From positions 1-25,927 of the IMG/VR virus record IMGVR_UViG_3300033153_008176: DNA of 25,927 bases; one strand, given 5' to 3'. Position numbers and translations under genes: made by a program. The notes under the pieces were generated by a model, which was not told the origin of the DNA, ran no database searches, and was given only the letters and a program-made list of their open reading frames with translations. The stretch is from a virus. Below are positions 2,790 through 17,322 of this stretch, piece after piece (position 1 is the first letter of the stretch; each line of letters opens with the position of its first letter).

Positions 2790-2865
2790 GGGGGGTGGGA
2801 CTGCTAGAGGTGGTCACCTCGCTTGCACCGAGGATTTCAGCGGGGTTTGAATCCCTGACTCTCCA
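2790..2865 (+). tRNA. tRNA-Ala (anticodon UGC)
   Basis: The acceptor GGGGGGT pairs with ACTCTCC and includes a G3:U70 wobble, the main identity mark of alanine tRNA. D stem is GACT/GGTC, anticodon stem CCTCG/CGAGG with loop CTTGCAC (TGC at 2824-2826), and T stem CGGGG/CCCTG with loop TTTGAAT. The region between anticodon and T stems is 7 nt, slightly long. CCA is not encoded: the sequence after discriminator A2865 is C then ATG, the start of the next gene. Confidence 0.88.
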
Positions 2866-6059: not shown

Positions 6060-6595
6060 ATCTCTTATACGATTTAGTTAATAGAAGAGGGCGCAAGGCT
6101 AGGGCTATAGTTTTAGAAGTTCAGTAACTCGTAATCGCGTATTTTGCGAGACAAAATGTTCTTTCAGTAACATTTTTAACTAAGGTTTCCACACGATTAC
6201 TTTGATGTATCTGTTCCCTGTTATCTAGGCGCTAACGTTTTCTTTAGAACTGCTGTCTTCCAAAAGGTCGACACCAAGAAAAGTGAGCGCCAAAGAACTG
6301 ATAGACTCTCGTTAAAGAACAAACTCGGTCTATGAAATTGAGTCTCACAGGAAACTTAGATACATAAGTAACTGTTTTCTAAAAATTAATCTACACTATA
6401 AGATTGGACACAATTAGCCATTGCTGTCCTACAGGGAAGAAAAAAAATATAGTCGGTTTGACCTACTACCGATAAGGGTAACGAGAAGGTTCTTGTTGAG
6501 GAAAGGTTTATCCAAGTTTCTCGTTCCGCCCGCGTCCTTTCAATTTGTAACCAGCGTTGTGGCAAGCTCTTTTAGATACTGTGAGCTTTTGAGTC
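6060..6595. ncRNA. Gene-free region dense in inverted repeats: second structured RNA candidate
   Basis: About 630 bases (5938-6571) hold no convincing gene but many perfect stems: TTAGTTAA/TTAACTAA (6074-6081/6176-6183) closing a domain with AAAATGTT/AACATTTT (6153/6169); GGCGCT/AGCGCC (6228/6286) extended by TTTTCTT/AAGAAAA (6238/6276); AGACTC/GAGTCT (6303/6340), which competes with ATAGAC/GTCTAT (6301/6328); GGACACAAT/ATTGcTGTCC (6406/6420); TCGGT/ACCGA (6453/6468); AACGAGAA/TTCTCGTT (6480-6487/6518-6525) enclosing CTTG/CAAG; AAGCTC/GAGCTT (6564/6583). The stems are Watson-Crick and do not settle the strand; a few possible G:U extensions slightly favour plus. No clear promoter was found on either strand. 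It lies between converging genes. Confidence 0.45.
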
Positions 6596-7012
6596 AATAT
6601 TAACGGGGGCGTTTAATTCATTCCAGCACGTCTTGCAATACAATTCGTAATCTGGAAGCCTAAAATCTTTTATGTGTTTCATGTTCTTGCAGAACATATA
6701 CAAATACTTTGTTCTCGTATTACACTTACTACATGTGTATTCTTTAGATTTTCTTAGTTCATGCCACATATATTTGAACCAGTCCATCTTATTTCTATCT
6801 TCTTCGAACTTCCACTTTAAGTAGTCTTGTTTTCTAGAACTTAACTTATCAAATTTTTTCTTAGTAATAAAGACTATTTCTAAATCTTTTTGATATTTTT
6901 TTAAACAGGTTCTGAATATGACAAATTCTCTATCGTCTAACTTTAGGCTGGGCAGAGATTCTTGTCTAGTTTTTCTAATCTCCCATCGTTCTTTTGATTT
7001 ATTAATGATCAT
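6572..7012 (-). CDS. Hypothetical protein with C-terminal zinc ribbon
   Basis: A 146-residue lysine-rich protein on the minus strand. A CSKC pair and a later CKTC pair, about 35 residues apart, form a probable zinc ribbon in the last third. The N-terminal two thirds is helical and charged (KKYQKDLEIVFITKKKFDKLSSRKQDYLKWKFEEDRNKMDW). No family is recognised; nucleic acid binding is plausible. Its ATG (7010-7012) lies two bases after the repeated TATATAT element (7015-7037), with no Shine-Dalgarno site. Confidence 0.6.
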   Translation of the reverse strand: MIINKSKERWEIRKTRQESLPSLKLDDREFVIFRTCLKKYQKDLEIVFITKKKFDKLSSRKQDYLKWKFEEDRNKMDWFKYMWHELRKSKEYTCSKCNTRTKYLYMFCKNMKHIKDFRLPDYELYCKTCWNELNAPVNIDSKAHSI

Positions 7013-7037: not shown

Positions 7038-7433
7038 TCAAAATGGTATGTTTTCTTTTGCTGACATCCTATCAAAAGTACTTTCTATACTATTTTCTAC
7101 ATCGCTGGGATCATGCGGAGTATTAGACATGAGCGTTTGTTTTTTTATGGGCTTATCCGCTATCTCTTTAAAGGTCATTTTAACTATAGTTGAAGGGTTA
7201 TACCATGTTGAATTTCCGTTTGGAGATTCAACCATGATGCCATTCTCATGGAAATGCCTAGCTGTATGTTCGGGGTCTCCCCTCCACTCCTGTTCTATCT
7301 CCATAGTAGTATTCAAGATAGGATCAAGTACATGAAACGTGACTTTGTACATTATTTGTTGTGGCGATGTTTTTGCTGATTGTCCATTCATTGAAGTTCC
7401 CTTGGTTTTACCAGATATTTTTATATTATTCAT
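7038..7433 (-). CDS. Hypothetical protein directly behind the initiator tRNA
   Basis: A 131-residue soluble protein with no recognised family; the middle has VTFHVLDPILNTTMEIEQEW and GIMVESPNGNSTWYNPSTIVKMTF. The frame extends upstream through the tRNA, which cannot be coding, so the first usable ATG is 7433, two bases after the tRNA discriminator, with no ribosome site. An alternative ATG at 7391 has AGGGA 6 nt upstream and would give 117 residues. It shares the transcript of the tRNA from the promoter at 7552. Confidence 0.6.
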   Translation of the reverse strand: MNNIKISGKTKGTSMNGQSAKTSPQQIMYKVTFHVLDPILNTTMEIEQEWRGDPEHTARHFHENGIMVESPNGNSTWYNPSTIVKMTFKEIADKPIKKQTLMSNTPHDPSDVENSIESTFDRMSAKENIPF

Positions 7434-7435
7434 AG

Positions 7436-7509
7436 TGGTGGGGGCGTGATTTGAACACGCGACCTCTGGGATATGAACCCAGTGAGATACCAGACTTCTC
7501 CACCCCACT
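7436..7509 (-). tRNA. Initiator tRNA-fMet (anticodon CAU)
   Basis: A 74-nt cloverleaf: acceptor AGTGGGG/CCCCACC, D stem GAGA/TCTC, anticodon stem CTGGG/CCCAG with loop TTCATAT, variable AGGTC, T stem GCGTG/CACGC with loop TTCAAAT, discriminator A, CCA not encoded. It has the bacterial initiator marks: position 1 x 72 is unpaired (A x C; E. coli has C x A), three consecutive G:C pairs close the anticodon stem (29-31/39-41), and A11:U24 is present. Large parts match E. coli initiator tRNA (GGGGTGGAG, CTGGTA, AGGTCG, GTTCAAATC). The A1 x C72 form and T32/T38 in the anticodon loop differ from E. coli. Confidence 0.93.
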
Positions 7510-7523
7510 AATTGTAAAGATTA

Positions 7524-7552
7524 AGTATACGGAATTTTTTTTTAAAAGTCAA
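7524..7552 (-). promoter_or_regulatory. Near-consensus sigma-70 promoter for the initiator tRNA block
   Basis: On the minus strand, -35 TTGACT (7552-7547) and -10 TATACT (7529-7524) are 17 bp apart. The predicted start is near 7517, about 8 nt before the tRNA 5' end. It is the best match to consensus in the window. Confidence 0.88.
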
Positions 7553-7572
7553 GAAAAAAATAACTTGACTTT
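7545..7572. repeat. Inverted repeat holding the -35 boxes of two divergent promoters
   Basis: Arms AAAGTCAAG (7545-7553) and CTTGACTTT (7564-7572) are perfect 9-bp complements around a 10-nt A-rich centre. Each arm contains the TTGACT -35 box of one divergent promoter, so one bound dimer could control both. Confidence 0.7.
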
Positions 7573-7593
7573 ATAAAATCTTTTTCATAAATT
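7565..7593 (+). promoter_or_regulatory. Divergent plus-strand promoter, predicted leaderless start
   Basis: TTGACT (7565-7570), 17 bp, TAAATT (7588-7593). The expected transcription start is at about 7600, which is the ATG of the next gene, so the message would have no leader. Confidence 0.65.
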
Positions 7594-7599
7594 ACCATC

Positions 7600-8061
7600 A
7601 TGGCTACAAATCAGGTTTTTGTGGGAGCACCCCCGAGACAAGGAAAGAGAAAAACAGATTCTCTAATGAAGGGTAAACTTAATGATGGAATGTGTAATAT
7701 AAATATAAATAATTATAAGGCCAAATTTACCTTCCATTCAAAGGGCAAGTCTATTAAGGGTGAGGTTGGGCTGGTTGGGTGTGAAACATCAATGTCTGCA
7801 CAAGTAGTTGGTTCTGTCAACACATCTTTTTTTATAAAACTACATTTAAATGATTTTGAAGTAGCTTTTCCTAAAATAGAAATAGGATCTCTGTTTCATG
7901 ATTGGGAAATTGAAATGAGTGTTAATGGTGTTAGGGGAAGAGTCACGATATCAACTATAGATATATGCCAAGATATGGATGCAATTCGAGAGATTGGAAC
8001 GGCAATTGTTTATCCTTATGGCGGAACTAGGTATGTAGAAATAAATGGAGAAATAAGATGA
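7600..8061 (+). CDS. Hypothetical beta-rich protein, probably leaderless
   Basis: A 153-residue protein, probably mostly beta (YKAKFTFHSKGKSIKGEVGLVG, then WEIEMSVNGVRGRVTISTIDI). No family is recognised. ATG 7600 lies 7 nt after a -10 box and has no Shine-Dalgarno sequence. It is first in the operon with the two NDP-sugar genes and overlaps the next start by ATGA. Confidence 0.65.
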   Translation: MATNQVFVGAPPRQGKRKTDSLMKGKLNDGMCNININNYKAKFTFHSKGKSIKGEVGLVGCETSMSAQVVGSVNTSFFIKLHLNDFEVAFPKIEIGSLFHDWEIEMSVNGVRGRVTISTIDICQDMDAIREIGTAIVYPYGGTRYVEINGEIR

Positions 8062-9014
8062 AAGCTCTTTTATTAGGTGGTGGTGGTTATTTTGGAACCC
8101 GTTTGGCAAGTTTTTTAACGGAATTAGGAGTTAATATAACTGTTGTTGACTTGTTTTGGTTTGGTAATCATATAGAGGAAGGAATTAAAACGATTCATGG
8201 AGACGTAAGTGATGTTACTGTGGATCAGTACGGTAGTTTTGATGTGGTTGTTTATTTGGCTGGTCTTTCAAATGATCCAATGGCTGAATTCAGCCCGAGA
8301 TTAAATTACATACACAATGCATCATATCCAATGCTCTGTGCCACCAGGGCAAGAAAGGCTTGTGTAAAAAGGTTTGTATTTGCCAGCTCGTGCTCTATAT
8401 ATGGTAGGGGCCATATGTGTGGTGAGTATGATCAAATCAAAACAGACTATCCTTACGGTATATCTAAATGGCAAGCAGAACAGGGCTTAGAGCTTCTCGA
8501 GACAGAAGACTTTAGAATAACTTTTCTGCGCAAAGGTACGTTGGGTGGTCATTCACCTAGAATGAGGTTTGACATTGCCGTTAATAGAATGTTTAAAACG
8601 GCTATGGTTGATAATAAAATTACCGTATATGACCCATCGGCATTCCGTCCACTTCTCGACATGGATGACGCCCTCAGGGCATACGCAAGTGCTATCACTG
8701 CGCCCCCCAATGTCCACGGCCCGTTCAACATCATTTCGGAGAATGTAACCATACTGGACTTGGCAATGAGGATGAAGCAGTATATGGAAGTGAAACACAT
8801 GACCACATCTATACAGATCAACAACTTACAGCAGAAAGAAGTTCGTGATTACAGTGCTAACTGGAATAATGCTATGAATGATTTGGGGTTTCAGGGTACG
8901 AGTACACTAGAATATACCATCGATGAACTGTGGCGAAATTGTGATAAGTATGACTATAACGACACAAACACTGTAAATATGGAAGTTTTCACAAGAATAG
9001 AGAGTACAATATGA
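8058..9014 (+). CDS. NAD(P)-dependent NDP-sugar epimerase/dehydratase
   Basis: A 318-residue extended short-chain dehydrogenase/reductase. GGGGYFG (residues 7-13) is the nucleotide-binding glycine motif, VVDLFWFGN the strand 2 region, GDV (48-50) an adenine contact, FASSCSIYG (108-116) the Ser motif and YGISK (133-137) the catalytic Tyr/Lys pair. RPLLDMDDALRAY matches the conserved C-terminal 'R.yvhVdDva.a' segment. The family changes NDP-hexoses by epimerisation, dehydration or reduction. It overlaps the RmlD-like gene by ATGA, so the two probably act in series on one sugar. Confidence 0.85.
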   Translation: MKALLLGGGGYFGTRLASFLTELGVNITVVDLFWFGNHIEEGIKTIHGDVSDVTVDQYGSFDVVVYLAGLSNDPMAEFSPRLNYIHNASYPMLCATRARKACVKRFVFASSCSIYGRGHMCGEYDQIKTDYPYGISKWQAEQGLELLETEDFRITFLRKGTLGGHSPRMRFDIAVNRMFKTAMVDNKITVYDPSAFRPLLDMDDALRAYASAITAPPNVHGPFNIISENVTILDLAMRMKQYMEVKHMTTSIQINNLQQKEVRDYSANWNNAMNDLGFQGTSTLEYTIDELWRNCDKYDYNDTNTVNMEVFTRIESTI

Positions 9015-9850
9015 GAATAGTTATCATTGGTTACACGGGTATGCTTGGTAGTGACCTATTTACCTATTTGACTGCCAAGCGTCAAGATGTATTTGGGCTT
9101 GATCATAGCGACATAGAGGTTGCCAGCCCAGATACCTTTGGTGTAATGGATGACTTCAAGCCAGAAATCATAATAAATACGTCTCATTGTAATTTTGAAG
9201 ACAGCGAGGCCGATCAAAAACGTGCTTTCGAGGTTAATACAGAGGGAGCAGGGAACGTAGCAAAGTATGCCCAAAAGACTGGTGCTTCAGTAATTCATTT
9301 TAGTTCCAGTTATGTTTTTGATGGTTCTAGAAATGTTTATCTCAATGAAGACGAGGCACCAGGCCCAATAAATGTATATGGAGTTTCAAAGCTTGCTGGT
9401 GAGTATATGGTAAAGAATTATTGTGAAAAGCACTTTATAATAAGGACTGGCGGGTTATATAGTAAGGTACAAACCAGAAAAGGGCCTAGCCATATTCATG
9501 ATATAATCCTTTCAGGTCAAGATAAAACTATTGATGTTTTTGGTAATTATCATTTTTCTCCTACTTGGACTTTACAGGTTTGTAAGAATTTAGTGCATCT
9601 GTTTGATTCTGGGGAGTACGGACTTTATCATATGACATCAACTGGTGACTGTAGTTATTATGATTTTGTGAGTTTGATCATAGAGGAGCTTAGGCTTCCC
9701 GCTGAGGTTGTAAAGGTTGATAATGAATTAGGGAACACACCTATGCGTAGCTTGTTACATAATAAGAACCTTGAAGTTATCGGATTAAATAAAATGGATT
9801 TTTGGGATGCAGCCTTAAAGAGATGTTTACTCAATTTTGAGGTATCATGA
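9011..9850 (+). CDS. dTDP-4-dehydrorhamnose reductase-like (RmlD family)
   Basis: A 279-residue protein of RmlD length. Features are GYTGMLG (7-13) for NAD(P)H, DHSDIEV (31-37), FKPEIIINTSHCNFEDSE (the 'kPDvViNaaAyt.VD.aE' motif), HFSSSYVFDG (96-105), and NVYGVSKLAGE with Tyr123 and Lys127 as catalytic pair. RmlD reduces dTDP-4-keto-rhamnose to dTDP-rhamnose. The canonical Ala-Ala of the third motif is replaced, so the exact sugar may differ. It is in an ATGA-coupled chain with the epimerase and the Ser/Thr-tailed protein. Confidence 0.82.
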   Translation: MRIVIIGYTGMLGSDLFTYLTAKRQDVFGLDHSDIEVASPDTFGVMDDFKPEIIINTSHCNFEDSEADQKRAFEVNTEGAGNVAKYAQKTGASVIHFSSSYVFDGSRNVYLNEDEAPGPINVYGVSKLAGEYMVKNYCEKHFIIRTGGLYSKVQTRKGPSHIHDIILSGQDKTIDVFGNYHFSPTWTLQVCKNLVHLFDSGEYGLYHMTSTGDCSYYDFVSLIIEELRLPAEVVKVDNELGNTPMRSLLHNKNLEVIGLNKMDFWDAALKRCLLNFEVS

Positions 9851-11410: not shown

Positions 11411-11600
11411 TATCCTTAATATTATGTTAAACAACGGTATGGAATATATTATGGATAATGTTCCGATGAAACAGATTGAAGACGAGAAGTTCCGTACATT
11501 AATTGCGGAGCACCTTGATCTGAGAAAGAAGATGGTACAGCATATAATTGATGGTTCAGTAAAGAAAGATGACGCTCAAATAGAATTGGATTTAAAATGA
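11394..11600 (+). CDS. Small hypothetical helical protein (68 aa)
   Basis: ATG 11394 follows GGAG with 7-nt spacing. The 68-residue product is acidic and helical (EDEKFRTLIAEHLDLRKKMVQHIIDGS). It overlaps the preceding gene by 17 nt and the formyltransferase start by ATGA. No family is recognised. Confidence 0.55.
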   Translation: MFTNNDILNIMLNNGMEYIMDNVPMKQIEDEKFRTLIAEHLDLRKKMVQHIIDGSVKKDDAQIELDLK

Positions 11601-12256
11601 TTGGGGTAATAACATACGATCATCCTCACAGGAAGACGTATGATACACTGTGTTTACTAAAGGCTAAAGGTTATCATGACGTTTCTTTGATCCTTTTGCC
11701 ATGGGAAGATAGAAAGGGATTTGTTCCACTATATAAACACAGACCGTATGGAACATTTGTTGATCCAGAATTGGTTGTGCAGAGTTTTGAATATAATGTA
11801 TATGATGCAGGTGTTTCGCCTGATTGTGATGTGTATCTTATTGCTGGTGCTGGTATACTCGGCCCCCCGTTTTCTACTAATGGAAAGACAATAAATGCTC
11901 ACCCAGGATATTTACCGAACGTTCGAGGACTTGATGCGTTAAAATGGGCAATACATGAAGGCCAACCTATTGGCGTGTCAACTCATATAATAGAGGAAAG
12001 GCCTGATGCTGGGAAGATTCTTGATCGACAATACGTTCCTATATACTCAAATGATACTTTTCATGCTCTCGCCCAAAGGCAATATGAGATGGAGGTTGAA
12101 ATGTTGGTTAGGGCCATGGAATTATTTAAGAATAAAAGTTTTGTTTATGAGACATATGAACAGGATTTGATAGATTACCCTTCTCATATGAGAATGCCGA
12201 AAGATAAAGAAATACATCTTTTAAATAAGTTCCAAAAGTTGGTGGAGAAATCGTGA
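11597..12256 (+). CDS. Formyltransferase-like protein
   Basis: A 219-residue formyltransferase-fold protein. The signature INAHPGYLPNVRG gives Asn100 and His102, and HIIEERPDAGKIL gives Asp137: the Asn-His-Asp triad of 10-formyl-THF-dependent transferases at family spacing. 'WAIHEGQPIGVSTH' also matches. The family includes GAR transformylase, methionyl-tRNA formyltransferase and sugar-amine N-formyltransferases. Methionyl-tRNA formyltransferase is normally about 310 residues with a C-terminal tRNA-binding domain, missing here. Nearby NDP-sugar genes favour a sugar substrate; the phage initiator tRNA makes a tRNA role worth testing. Confidence 0.75.
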   Translation: MIGVITYDHPHRKTYDTLCLLKAKGYHDVSLILLPWEDRKGFVPLYKHRPYGTFVDPELVVQSFEYNVYDAGVSPDCDVYLIAGAGILGPPFSTNGKTINAHPGYLPNVRGLDALKWAIHEGQPIGVSTHIIEERPDAGKILDRQYVPIYSNDTFHALAQRQYEMEVEMLVRAMELFKNKSFVYETYEQDLIDYPSHMRMPKDKEIHLLNKFQKLVEKS

Positions 12257-16136: not shown

Positions 16137-16610
16137 ATGGAAGAGAAAAAGTGGTCTGATTTAGCACAGTACGAATATCCCGAGGCGGCTGGAATGGTCG
16201 CCTCTAAGGATATTATTAAAATGCTCCACGATCGGTTGATCACAAAGGTCAATCTATTGGCGTGGAATGCTCAATTTATAGCAGATCTTGAAGTAGAAGT
16301 TAGTGCTATTAATGCAGCTATTGGTGTTATCAAAACTAAGAAACACCATCTTGTTAATTATCATTTGACTCAGTCATTTGATAAAATTCCAAATTACTAT
16401 AAACGTAGTAAAGATTTAATGGCTTCGTGGGTTGAAGAGAACCTCATAAAAAGTGAGCTTATGACTTTCAACGATAAGGTTGAGAAATATAACGGAGAGC
16501 TCATAGAAATTCAAAGGGATCTATTTACTTATAAGTATAAATATGAGGTATTACAAAAATCAATTGATGTTGGTATATGCCTTGTTAATTCCATGAAAGA
16601 ACATGAATGA
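16137..16610 (+). CDS. Hypothetical coiled-coil protein
   Basis: A 157-residue, mostly helical protein. Long heptad-like stretches (IADLEVEVSAINAAIGVIKTKKHHL and NDKVEKYNGELIEIQRDLF) suggest a two-helix coiled coil. ATG 16137 has AAGGG about 8 nt upstream. It sits between SSB and the HD-GYP gene and overlaps the latter by 8 nt. No family is recognised. Confidence 0.65.
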   Translation: MEEKKWSDLAQYEYPEAAGMVASKDIIKMLHDRLITKVNLLAWNAQFIADLEVEVSAINAAIGVIKTKKHHLVNYHLTQSFDKIPNYYKRSKDLMASWVEENLIKSELMTFNDKVEKYNGELIEIQRDLFTYKYKYEVLQKSIDVGICLVNSMKEHE

Positions 16611-17322
16611 CGATCTGTATAATATAATGCTCGAACAGGATAGAAAAGTAAAGCAAGCAGAATTTGACACAAGAAGAACTATTTTCTTAATTGCTTTTTT
16701 GCGTGTGATAGAGGTGCATGAGCACTCTATACATACGGCAAGACATTCTGATCGTGTAGCAACTATCTCTCATTTGATTGGGAAGACAATGGGTTTACCA
16801 GATAGAGAGCTTGGTCAATTGTGGAGATGTGGGCTTTTACATGATATTGGAAAGATAGGCTTGTCTTCTGAAATTATATTGTCTGATAAAAAGCTTTCAA
16901 AGAAGGAGCGAGCTAGGGTCAAAATGCATCCTATTTATGGCGCGAAGATTCTAGAAGTTGCACCATTTTTTAAAGTAGAGTCACTTGTTACAAAACAACA
17001 TCATGAGTGTTTTGATGGTAATGGATATCCAGATGGCATTGAGGGTAAAAATATTCATTTATTTGCAAGGATAATACATGTTGTAGATGTGTATGATGCT
17101 CTTGTTGCTTTTCGTGGATATAAGGATTTATGGGATGAGGGAAGGGCGGCAAACTACATTGCCCTCCAAAGCGGGAAGATGTTTGATCCGAGGGTTGTAA
17201 AGATATTTTTAGCTGCAATGGAGACCGAAAGGTTTCAAGGTTTGTATAACGATCCAGAAGTATATTCAGTATATAAGGAGATGATGGATGATGAGAGTGC
17301 TGTTAGTGGGGGTGTCGGGTAA
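16603..17322 (+). CDS. HD-GYP domain phosphodiesterase
   Basis: A 239-residue stand-alone HD-GYP domain with every signature residue: ARHSDRV (His48), LLHDIGKIG (His80-Asp81), VKMHPIYGAKIL (His109), QHHECFDGNGYPDG (His133, His134, GYP 141-143) and VVDVYDAL (Asp162, Asp165). In bacteria this domain hydrolyses cyclic di-GMP, and some members cleave 3'3'-cGAMP. There is no receiver or sensor domain; only about 30 residues precede the catalytic fold. It overlaps the coiled-coil gene and the dNMP kinase gene, so it belongs to the replication/nucleotide operon. The substrate is inferred from the family. Confidence 0.9.
   Translation: MNDDLYNIMLEQDRKVKQAEFDTRRTIFLIAFLRVIEVHEHSIHTARHSDRVATISHLIGKTMGLPDRELGQLWRCGLLHDIGKIGLSSEIILSDKKLSKKERARVKMHPIYGAKILEVAPFFKVESLVTKQHHECFDGNGYPDGIEGKNIHLFARIIHVVDVYDALVAFRGYKDLWDEGRAANYIALQSGKMFDPRVVKIFLAAMETERFQGLYNDPEVYSVYKEMMDDESAVSGGVG

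What the first reader, a model, noticed from the sequence alone, without database searches (positions are those of the whole stretch)
7436..7509. Phage-encoded initiator tRNA with an A1 x C72 mismatch
The sequence shows all initiator marks: unpaired 1 x 72, three G:C pairs below the anticodon loop, A11:U24 and CAU. Phage tRNAs normally serve elongation. The mismatch is A x C, where E. coli has C x A, and loop positions 32 and 38 are both T. It is transcribed from the best promoter in the window as the first product, so large amounts may be made. It might bias host ribosomes to phage starts or replace a cleaved host initiator tRNA.
Basis: partly seen in the sequence, partly recalled or inferred. 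Interest (0 to 1): 0.85.

Follow-up and report, generated by a model that had tools for sequence, protein, structure and literature searches.

The report
Phage-encoded initiator tRNA, conserved in relatives
This uncultured phage carries its own copy of the special tRNA that starts every bacterial protein; the gene is real and kept by its close relatives, but many other phages carry one too, including some with the same unusual first base pair.

Summary
A tRNA(CAU) lies at 7436-7509 on the minus strand with A1xC72, G29-G31:C39-C41, A11:U24 and U32/U38. An initiator covariance model gives 84.4 bits against 47.7 (elongator Met) and 42.8 (Ile2), so it is initiator-class. Four related virus contigs carry the tRNA in the same place; the five copies show compensatory changes at 10 of 21 pairs and an R11:Y24 pair in all. 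The 1:72 position varies (AxC, G.U, U:A) and is never G:C. A promoter-like site with 17-base spacing lies 8-16 bases upstream in four of five.

It is not exceptional. AxC occurs in 8 of 78 distinct viral initiator tRNAs, in a Bixzunavirus mycobacteriophage, and in 49 bacterial genome stretches, mostly Nitrospirota. U32/U38 recurs in other phages. 'Best promoter in the window' is wrong.

Most likely it tops up or replaces host initiator tRNA during infection; U38, in the region VapC toxins cut, fits nuclease evasion but is untested. More unusual: the flanking genes look leaderless, one starting exactly 2 nt after the tRNA.

The parts
7436..7509 (-). initiator-type tRNA(CAU); position 1 = 7509, discriminator A73 = 7436; A1xC72, 3 G:C pairs, A11:U24, U32/U38; CCA not fully encoded (ACTA)
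7524..7552 (-). promoter-like site TTGACT-17-TATACT, 14 nt upstream of the tRNA 5' end; same 17-nt geometry in G001, G002, G004
7038..7433 (-). small ORF (131 aa) whose ATG lies exactly 2 nt after A73; homologous ORF with the same junction in G001 and G003, and a weakly similar one (21%) in G004
7565..7593 (+). divergent promoter-like site TTGACT-17-TAAATT, ending 6 nt before the ATG at 7600; same geometry in G001, G002, G004 (leaderless-type)
7600..8061 (+). divergent neighbour ORF (153 aa), no family match, conserved beside the tRNA
6572..7012 (-). second downstream ORF (146 aa, paired CxxC motifs), conserved in G001 and G002

Best explanation
It is a functional phage initiator tRNA gene. 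Inferred path: transcribed from its own upstream promoter as the 5' part of a tRNA-mRNA transcript, matured by host RNase P and 3' processing, given CCA, charged by host MetRS, formylated by host Fmt (weak 1:72 and R11:Y24), and used by host ribosomes for initiation during infection. The likely benefit is to supplement or replace host initiator tRNA when infection or a tRNA-cleaving defence depletes it; U32/U38 in the loop would fit a nuclease-resistant copy. Shown here: gene, class, conservation, promoter-like element. Not shown: expression, charging, formylation, nuclease resistance.
For: Initiator model 84.4 bits vs 47.7 and 42.8; the same preference in G002, G003 and G004, while G001 scores 66.7 with the initiator model and is not listed by the other two. 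Syntenic in five related phages with compensatory changes. R11:Y24 in all five, 1:72 never a strong pair. Conserved upstream promoter-like site in four. VapC toxins cut tRNA-fMet in the anticodon stem-loop, at the anticodon or 3' of it before the stem (PMC7180214, PMC8522696); U38 lies there. 6 of 78 distinct viral initiator tRNAs depart from A38 against 0 of 46 cellular ones, p=0.08 for position 38 alone, p=0.026 for 32 or 38. Phage tRNAs with loop changes that evade tRNases have been proposed (PMC10264068).
Against: No expression data. U38 is not conserved within the family (G001, G002, G003 have A38), and three relatives have only one or two of the three G:C pairs, so they may be weaker initiators or dual-use tRNAs. 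PMC10264068 reports that phages facing the S. flexneri VapC tend to avoid tRNA-fMet. The host is unknown, so the host initiator tRNA and any VapC could not be compared. The p-values rest on a cellular sample dominated by Nitrospirota.
Confidence: 0.72

Rival explanations
1. Specifically a counter-defence replacement: the host cleaves its own initiator tRNA (VapC-type) on infection and the phage copy survives because of U32/U38.
For: U38 is in the known cut region; loop departures are found in viral but not in the sampled cellular initiator tRNAs; G004 shares U32/U38.
Against: Three of five relatives keep A38; significance is marginal and the cellular sample is narrow; no host or toxin identified.
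Confidence: 0.25
2. The tRNA serves mainly as a processing element: cutting the tRNA 3' end creates a 5'-CU-AUG, effectively leaderless mRNA for the small ORF, so tRNA and ORF are co-expressed.
For: Exact 2-nt spacing in 4 of 5 fMet tRNAs and in two tRNA-Thr genes of relatives; no SD precedes that start; the divergent ORF also looks leaderless.
Against: Does not require an initiator identity; lost in G002; in the window a second in-frame ATG 42 nt downstream has an SD-like AAGGGAA. Offset-2 ATGs are only modestly enriched after viral tRNAs in general (11 of 392, about 2 expected).
Confidence: 0.2
3. Elongator Met or Ile2(CAU) tRNA that only resembles an initiator.
For: Anticodon CAU; three relatives have fewer G:C pairs in the anticodon stem; G1.U72 is associated with dual use in mitochondria (PMC7949028).
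Against: About 37 bits lower with the elongator model and 42 lower with Ile2; R11:Y24 and weak 1:72 in all five.
Confidence: 0.05
4. Relic of a host tRNA attachment site or host contamination.
For: Some viral-contig initiator tRNAs in the census lie close to contig ends.
Against: The gene is internal and flanked by conserved phage genes in all five contigs; compensatory evolution and no fully encoded CCA.
Confidence: 0.03

Closest known systems
Bacterial initiator tRNA-fMet (e.g. E. coli metZWV/metY)
   Same: Weak or mismatched 1:72, three G:C pairs, R11:Y24, CAU, similar D-loop
   Different: AxC instead of CxA at 1:72; U32/U38 instead of C32/A38; phage-encoded
Phage-annotated tRNA-fMet/Met(CAU): Caulobacter phage CcrSC, Stenotrophomonas phage QDWS359, Mycobacterium phage Erdmann (Bixzunavirus), DSS3_MAL1, Erwinia pEa_SNUABM_47
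   Same: All ten examined phage tRNAs score higher with the initiator than the elongator model; Erdmann has A1xC72; DSS3_MAL1 has U32/U38; tRNA-fMet in pEa_SNUABM_47 is from PMC7760394
   Different: Many of those examined lie next to other tRNA genes in larger genomes; here it is a lone tRNA joined to a small ORF
Nitrospirota cellular initiator tRNAs with A1xC72
   Same: A1xC72, three G:C pairs, A11:U24
   Different: All have C32/A38; no host link could be shown

Membership tests
Bacterial initiator tRNA (tRNA-fMet) | Absent or weak 1:72 pair | tested here: met
   AxC in window and G001, G.U in G002 and G004, U:A in G003
Bacterial initiator tRNA (tRNA-fMet) | Three consecutive G:C pairs 29-31:39-41 | tested here: met
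   GGG:CCC in window and G004; relatives G001, G002, G003 keep only one or two
Bacterial initiator tRNA (tRNA-fMet) | R11:Y24 (A11:U24) | tested here: met
   A:U in four, G:C in G001
Bacterial initiator tRNA (tRNA-fMet) | Best score with an initiator model | tested here: met
   84.4 vs 47.7 and 42.8 bits
Bacterial initiator tRNA (tRNA-fMet) | Formylation and P-site initiation | not testable with these tools
   needs biochemistry
Elongator tRNA-Met | Y11:R24 and strong 1:72 pair | tested here: not met
tRNase-evading phage tRNA (PMC10264068) | Anticodon-loop change at or near a nuclease site | tested here: inconclusive
   U38 present in window and G004 only; nuclease and host unknown
tRNase-evading phage tRNA (PMC10264068) | Resistance to cleavage | not testable with these tools
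   needs assay

The most novel reading that the evidence does not exclude
The phage couples its own initiator tRNA to leaderless gene expression: the tRNA's 3' processing releases a leaderless mRNA and the divergent gene is transcribed leaderless, so extra initiator tRNA would favour 70S initiation on these phage messages.
Probability: 0.08. Interest if true: 0.75.

Novelty: new member of a known kind. Interest (0 to 1): 0.38.

Why it matters
It documents an initiator tRNA kept by a family of uncultured phages despite drift at positions thought to define initiators, a natural series for testing which features matter. It also shows that phage initiator tRNAs are common and mostly annotated simply as tRNA-Met, so their role in infection is an open and testable question.

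Tried and rejected
Formyltransferase ORF 11597-12256 as a phage Fmt: rejected, best matches are PurN and sugar formyltransferases, only the N-terminal domain was matched, and RmlD-like and epimerase genes lie nearby. Host assignment to Nitrospirota from A1xC72: suggestive only; no terminase match, the DNA matches examined fall in conserved genes, short near-identical matches are not in repeat arrays, and AxC is also found in unrelated viruses. AxC as unique: rejected. Pattern search for near-identical tRNAs in viral contigs: none. Literature: tRNA-fMet has already been reported in huge and jumbo phages (PMC10747093, PMC7760394).

Full report
Observation. ARAGORN and Rfam both place a tRNA(CAU) on the minus strand at 7436-7509. 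The CCA end is not fully encoded (A73 is followed by CTA).

Class. I built three covariance models: from cellular initiators (mainly Nitrospirota, nine of twelve with other 1:72 combinations than AxC), elongator Met and Ile2 tRNAs. One E. coli elongator sequence in the elongator set, and the E. coli initiator query, were typed from my own knowledge. The assignment of the two CAU elongator sets to Met and Ile2 is by resemblance. The window tRNA scores 84.4, 47.7 and 42.8 bits. The relatives G002, G003 and G004 rank the same way; G001 scores 66.7 with the initiator model and is not listed by the other two.

Conservation. Terminase and epimerase searches found four related contigs (G001-G004; terminase identity 81-97%). 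All four have a tRNA(CAU) beside homologues of the neighbouring genes. Over the five sequences 98.1% of pair cells are standard, 10 of 21 pairs change on both sides, and slid controls collapse to about 44-55%. 1:72 is AxC twice, G.U twice, U:A once. Three relatives have lost one or two of the three G:C pairs; R11:Y24 is kept by all. Selection therefore maintains a tRNA with a weak 1:72 pair. A more distant relative, G008 (59% terminase identity), has only a different tRNA in the stretch held.

Expression. A TTGACT-17-TATACT site ends 14 nt before the tRNA; the same 17-nt geometry stands 8-16 nt upstream in G001, G002 and G004. It is not the best promoter-like site of the window: two others score 11/12 and eleven others also score 10/12.

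How unusual. Some of these contigs may include host sequence. An E. coli initiator query matched 275 phage records; ten phage tRNAs checked all prefer the initiator to the elongator model, among them Mycobacterium phage Erdmann with A1xC72 and DSS3_MAL1 with U32/U38. In about 85,000 species genomes a strict A1...C72 pattern gave 49 stretches, mostly Nitrospirota, all C32/A38. Nitrospirota initiators show several 1:72 combinations, but no independent evidence ties this phage to that phylum.

Function. VapC toxins cut tRNA-fMet in the anticodon stem-loop, at or 3' of the anticodon (PMC7180214, PMC8522696). U38 lies in that region. Departures at 32 or 38 occur in 9 of 78 viral and 0 of 46 cellular distinct sequences (p=0.026; position 38 alone p=0.08). 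This fits the evasion hypothesis of PMC10264068 but is weak, since three relatives keep A38. I favour a general supplement or replacement role, with evasion as one possible driver.

Leaderless neighbours. In the window, G001, G003 and G004 an ORF starts exactly 2 nt after A73, and two tRNA-Thr genes of relatives show the same junction. On the other side the divergent ORF has its -10 ending 6 nt before the ATG in window, G001, G002 and G004, whereas 12 of 20 ORFs surveyed have an SD-like core upstream. This suggests leaderless messages on both sides; a coupling to the initiator tRNA is speculation.

Noticed in passing
window 7430-7436 and L010, L009, L013, L007, L006: Start codon of the following ORF exactly 2 nt after the tRNA discriminator base (C-U/C-AUG), for two different tRNA/ORF pairs in this phage family.
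   Followed up: partly
window 7565-7600: Divergent ORF with TTGACT-17-TAnATT-6-ATG in four relatives, so transcription would start at about the start codon (leaderless).
   Followed up: partly
window 2790-2865: Degenerate tRNA-like sequence (23.4 bits with the initiator model) directly after tRNA-Thr(UGU) 2713-2785, missed by ARAGORN and Rfam; loop CTTGCAC suggests Ala(UGC).
   Followed up: no
window 11597-12256: Protein matching only Formyl_trans_N, nearest PurN and sugar formyltransferases, with RmlD-like and epimerase genes at 8058-9850; probably glycan decoration.
   Followed up: partly
window 16603-17322: Phage-encoded HD-GYP type (HD_5) protein, similar to c-di-GMP phosphodiesterases.
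   Followed up: no
L142-L190: A1xC72 initiator tRNAs in bacteria are concentrated in Nitrospirota, and that phylum shows several 1:72 combinations (U:A, AxA, CxU, UxU, CxA, CxC).
   Followed up: partly
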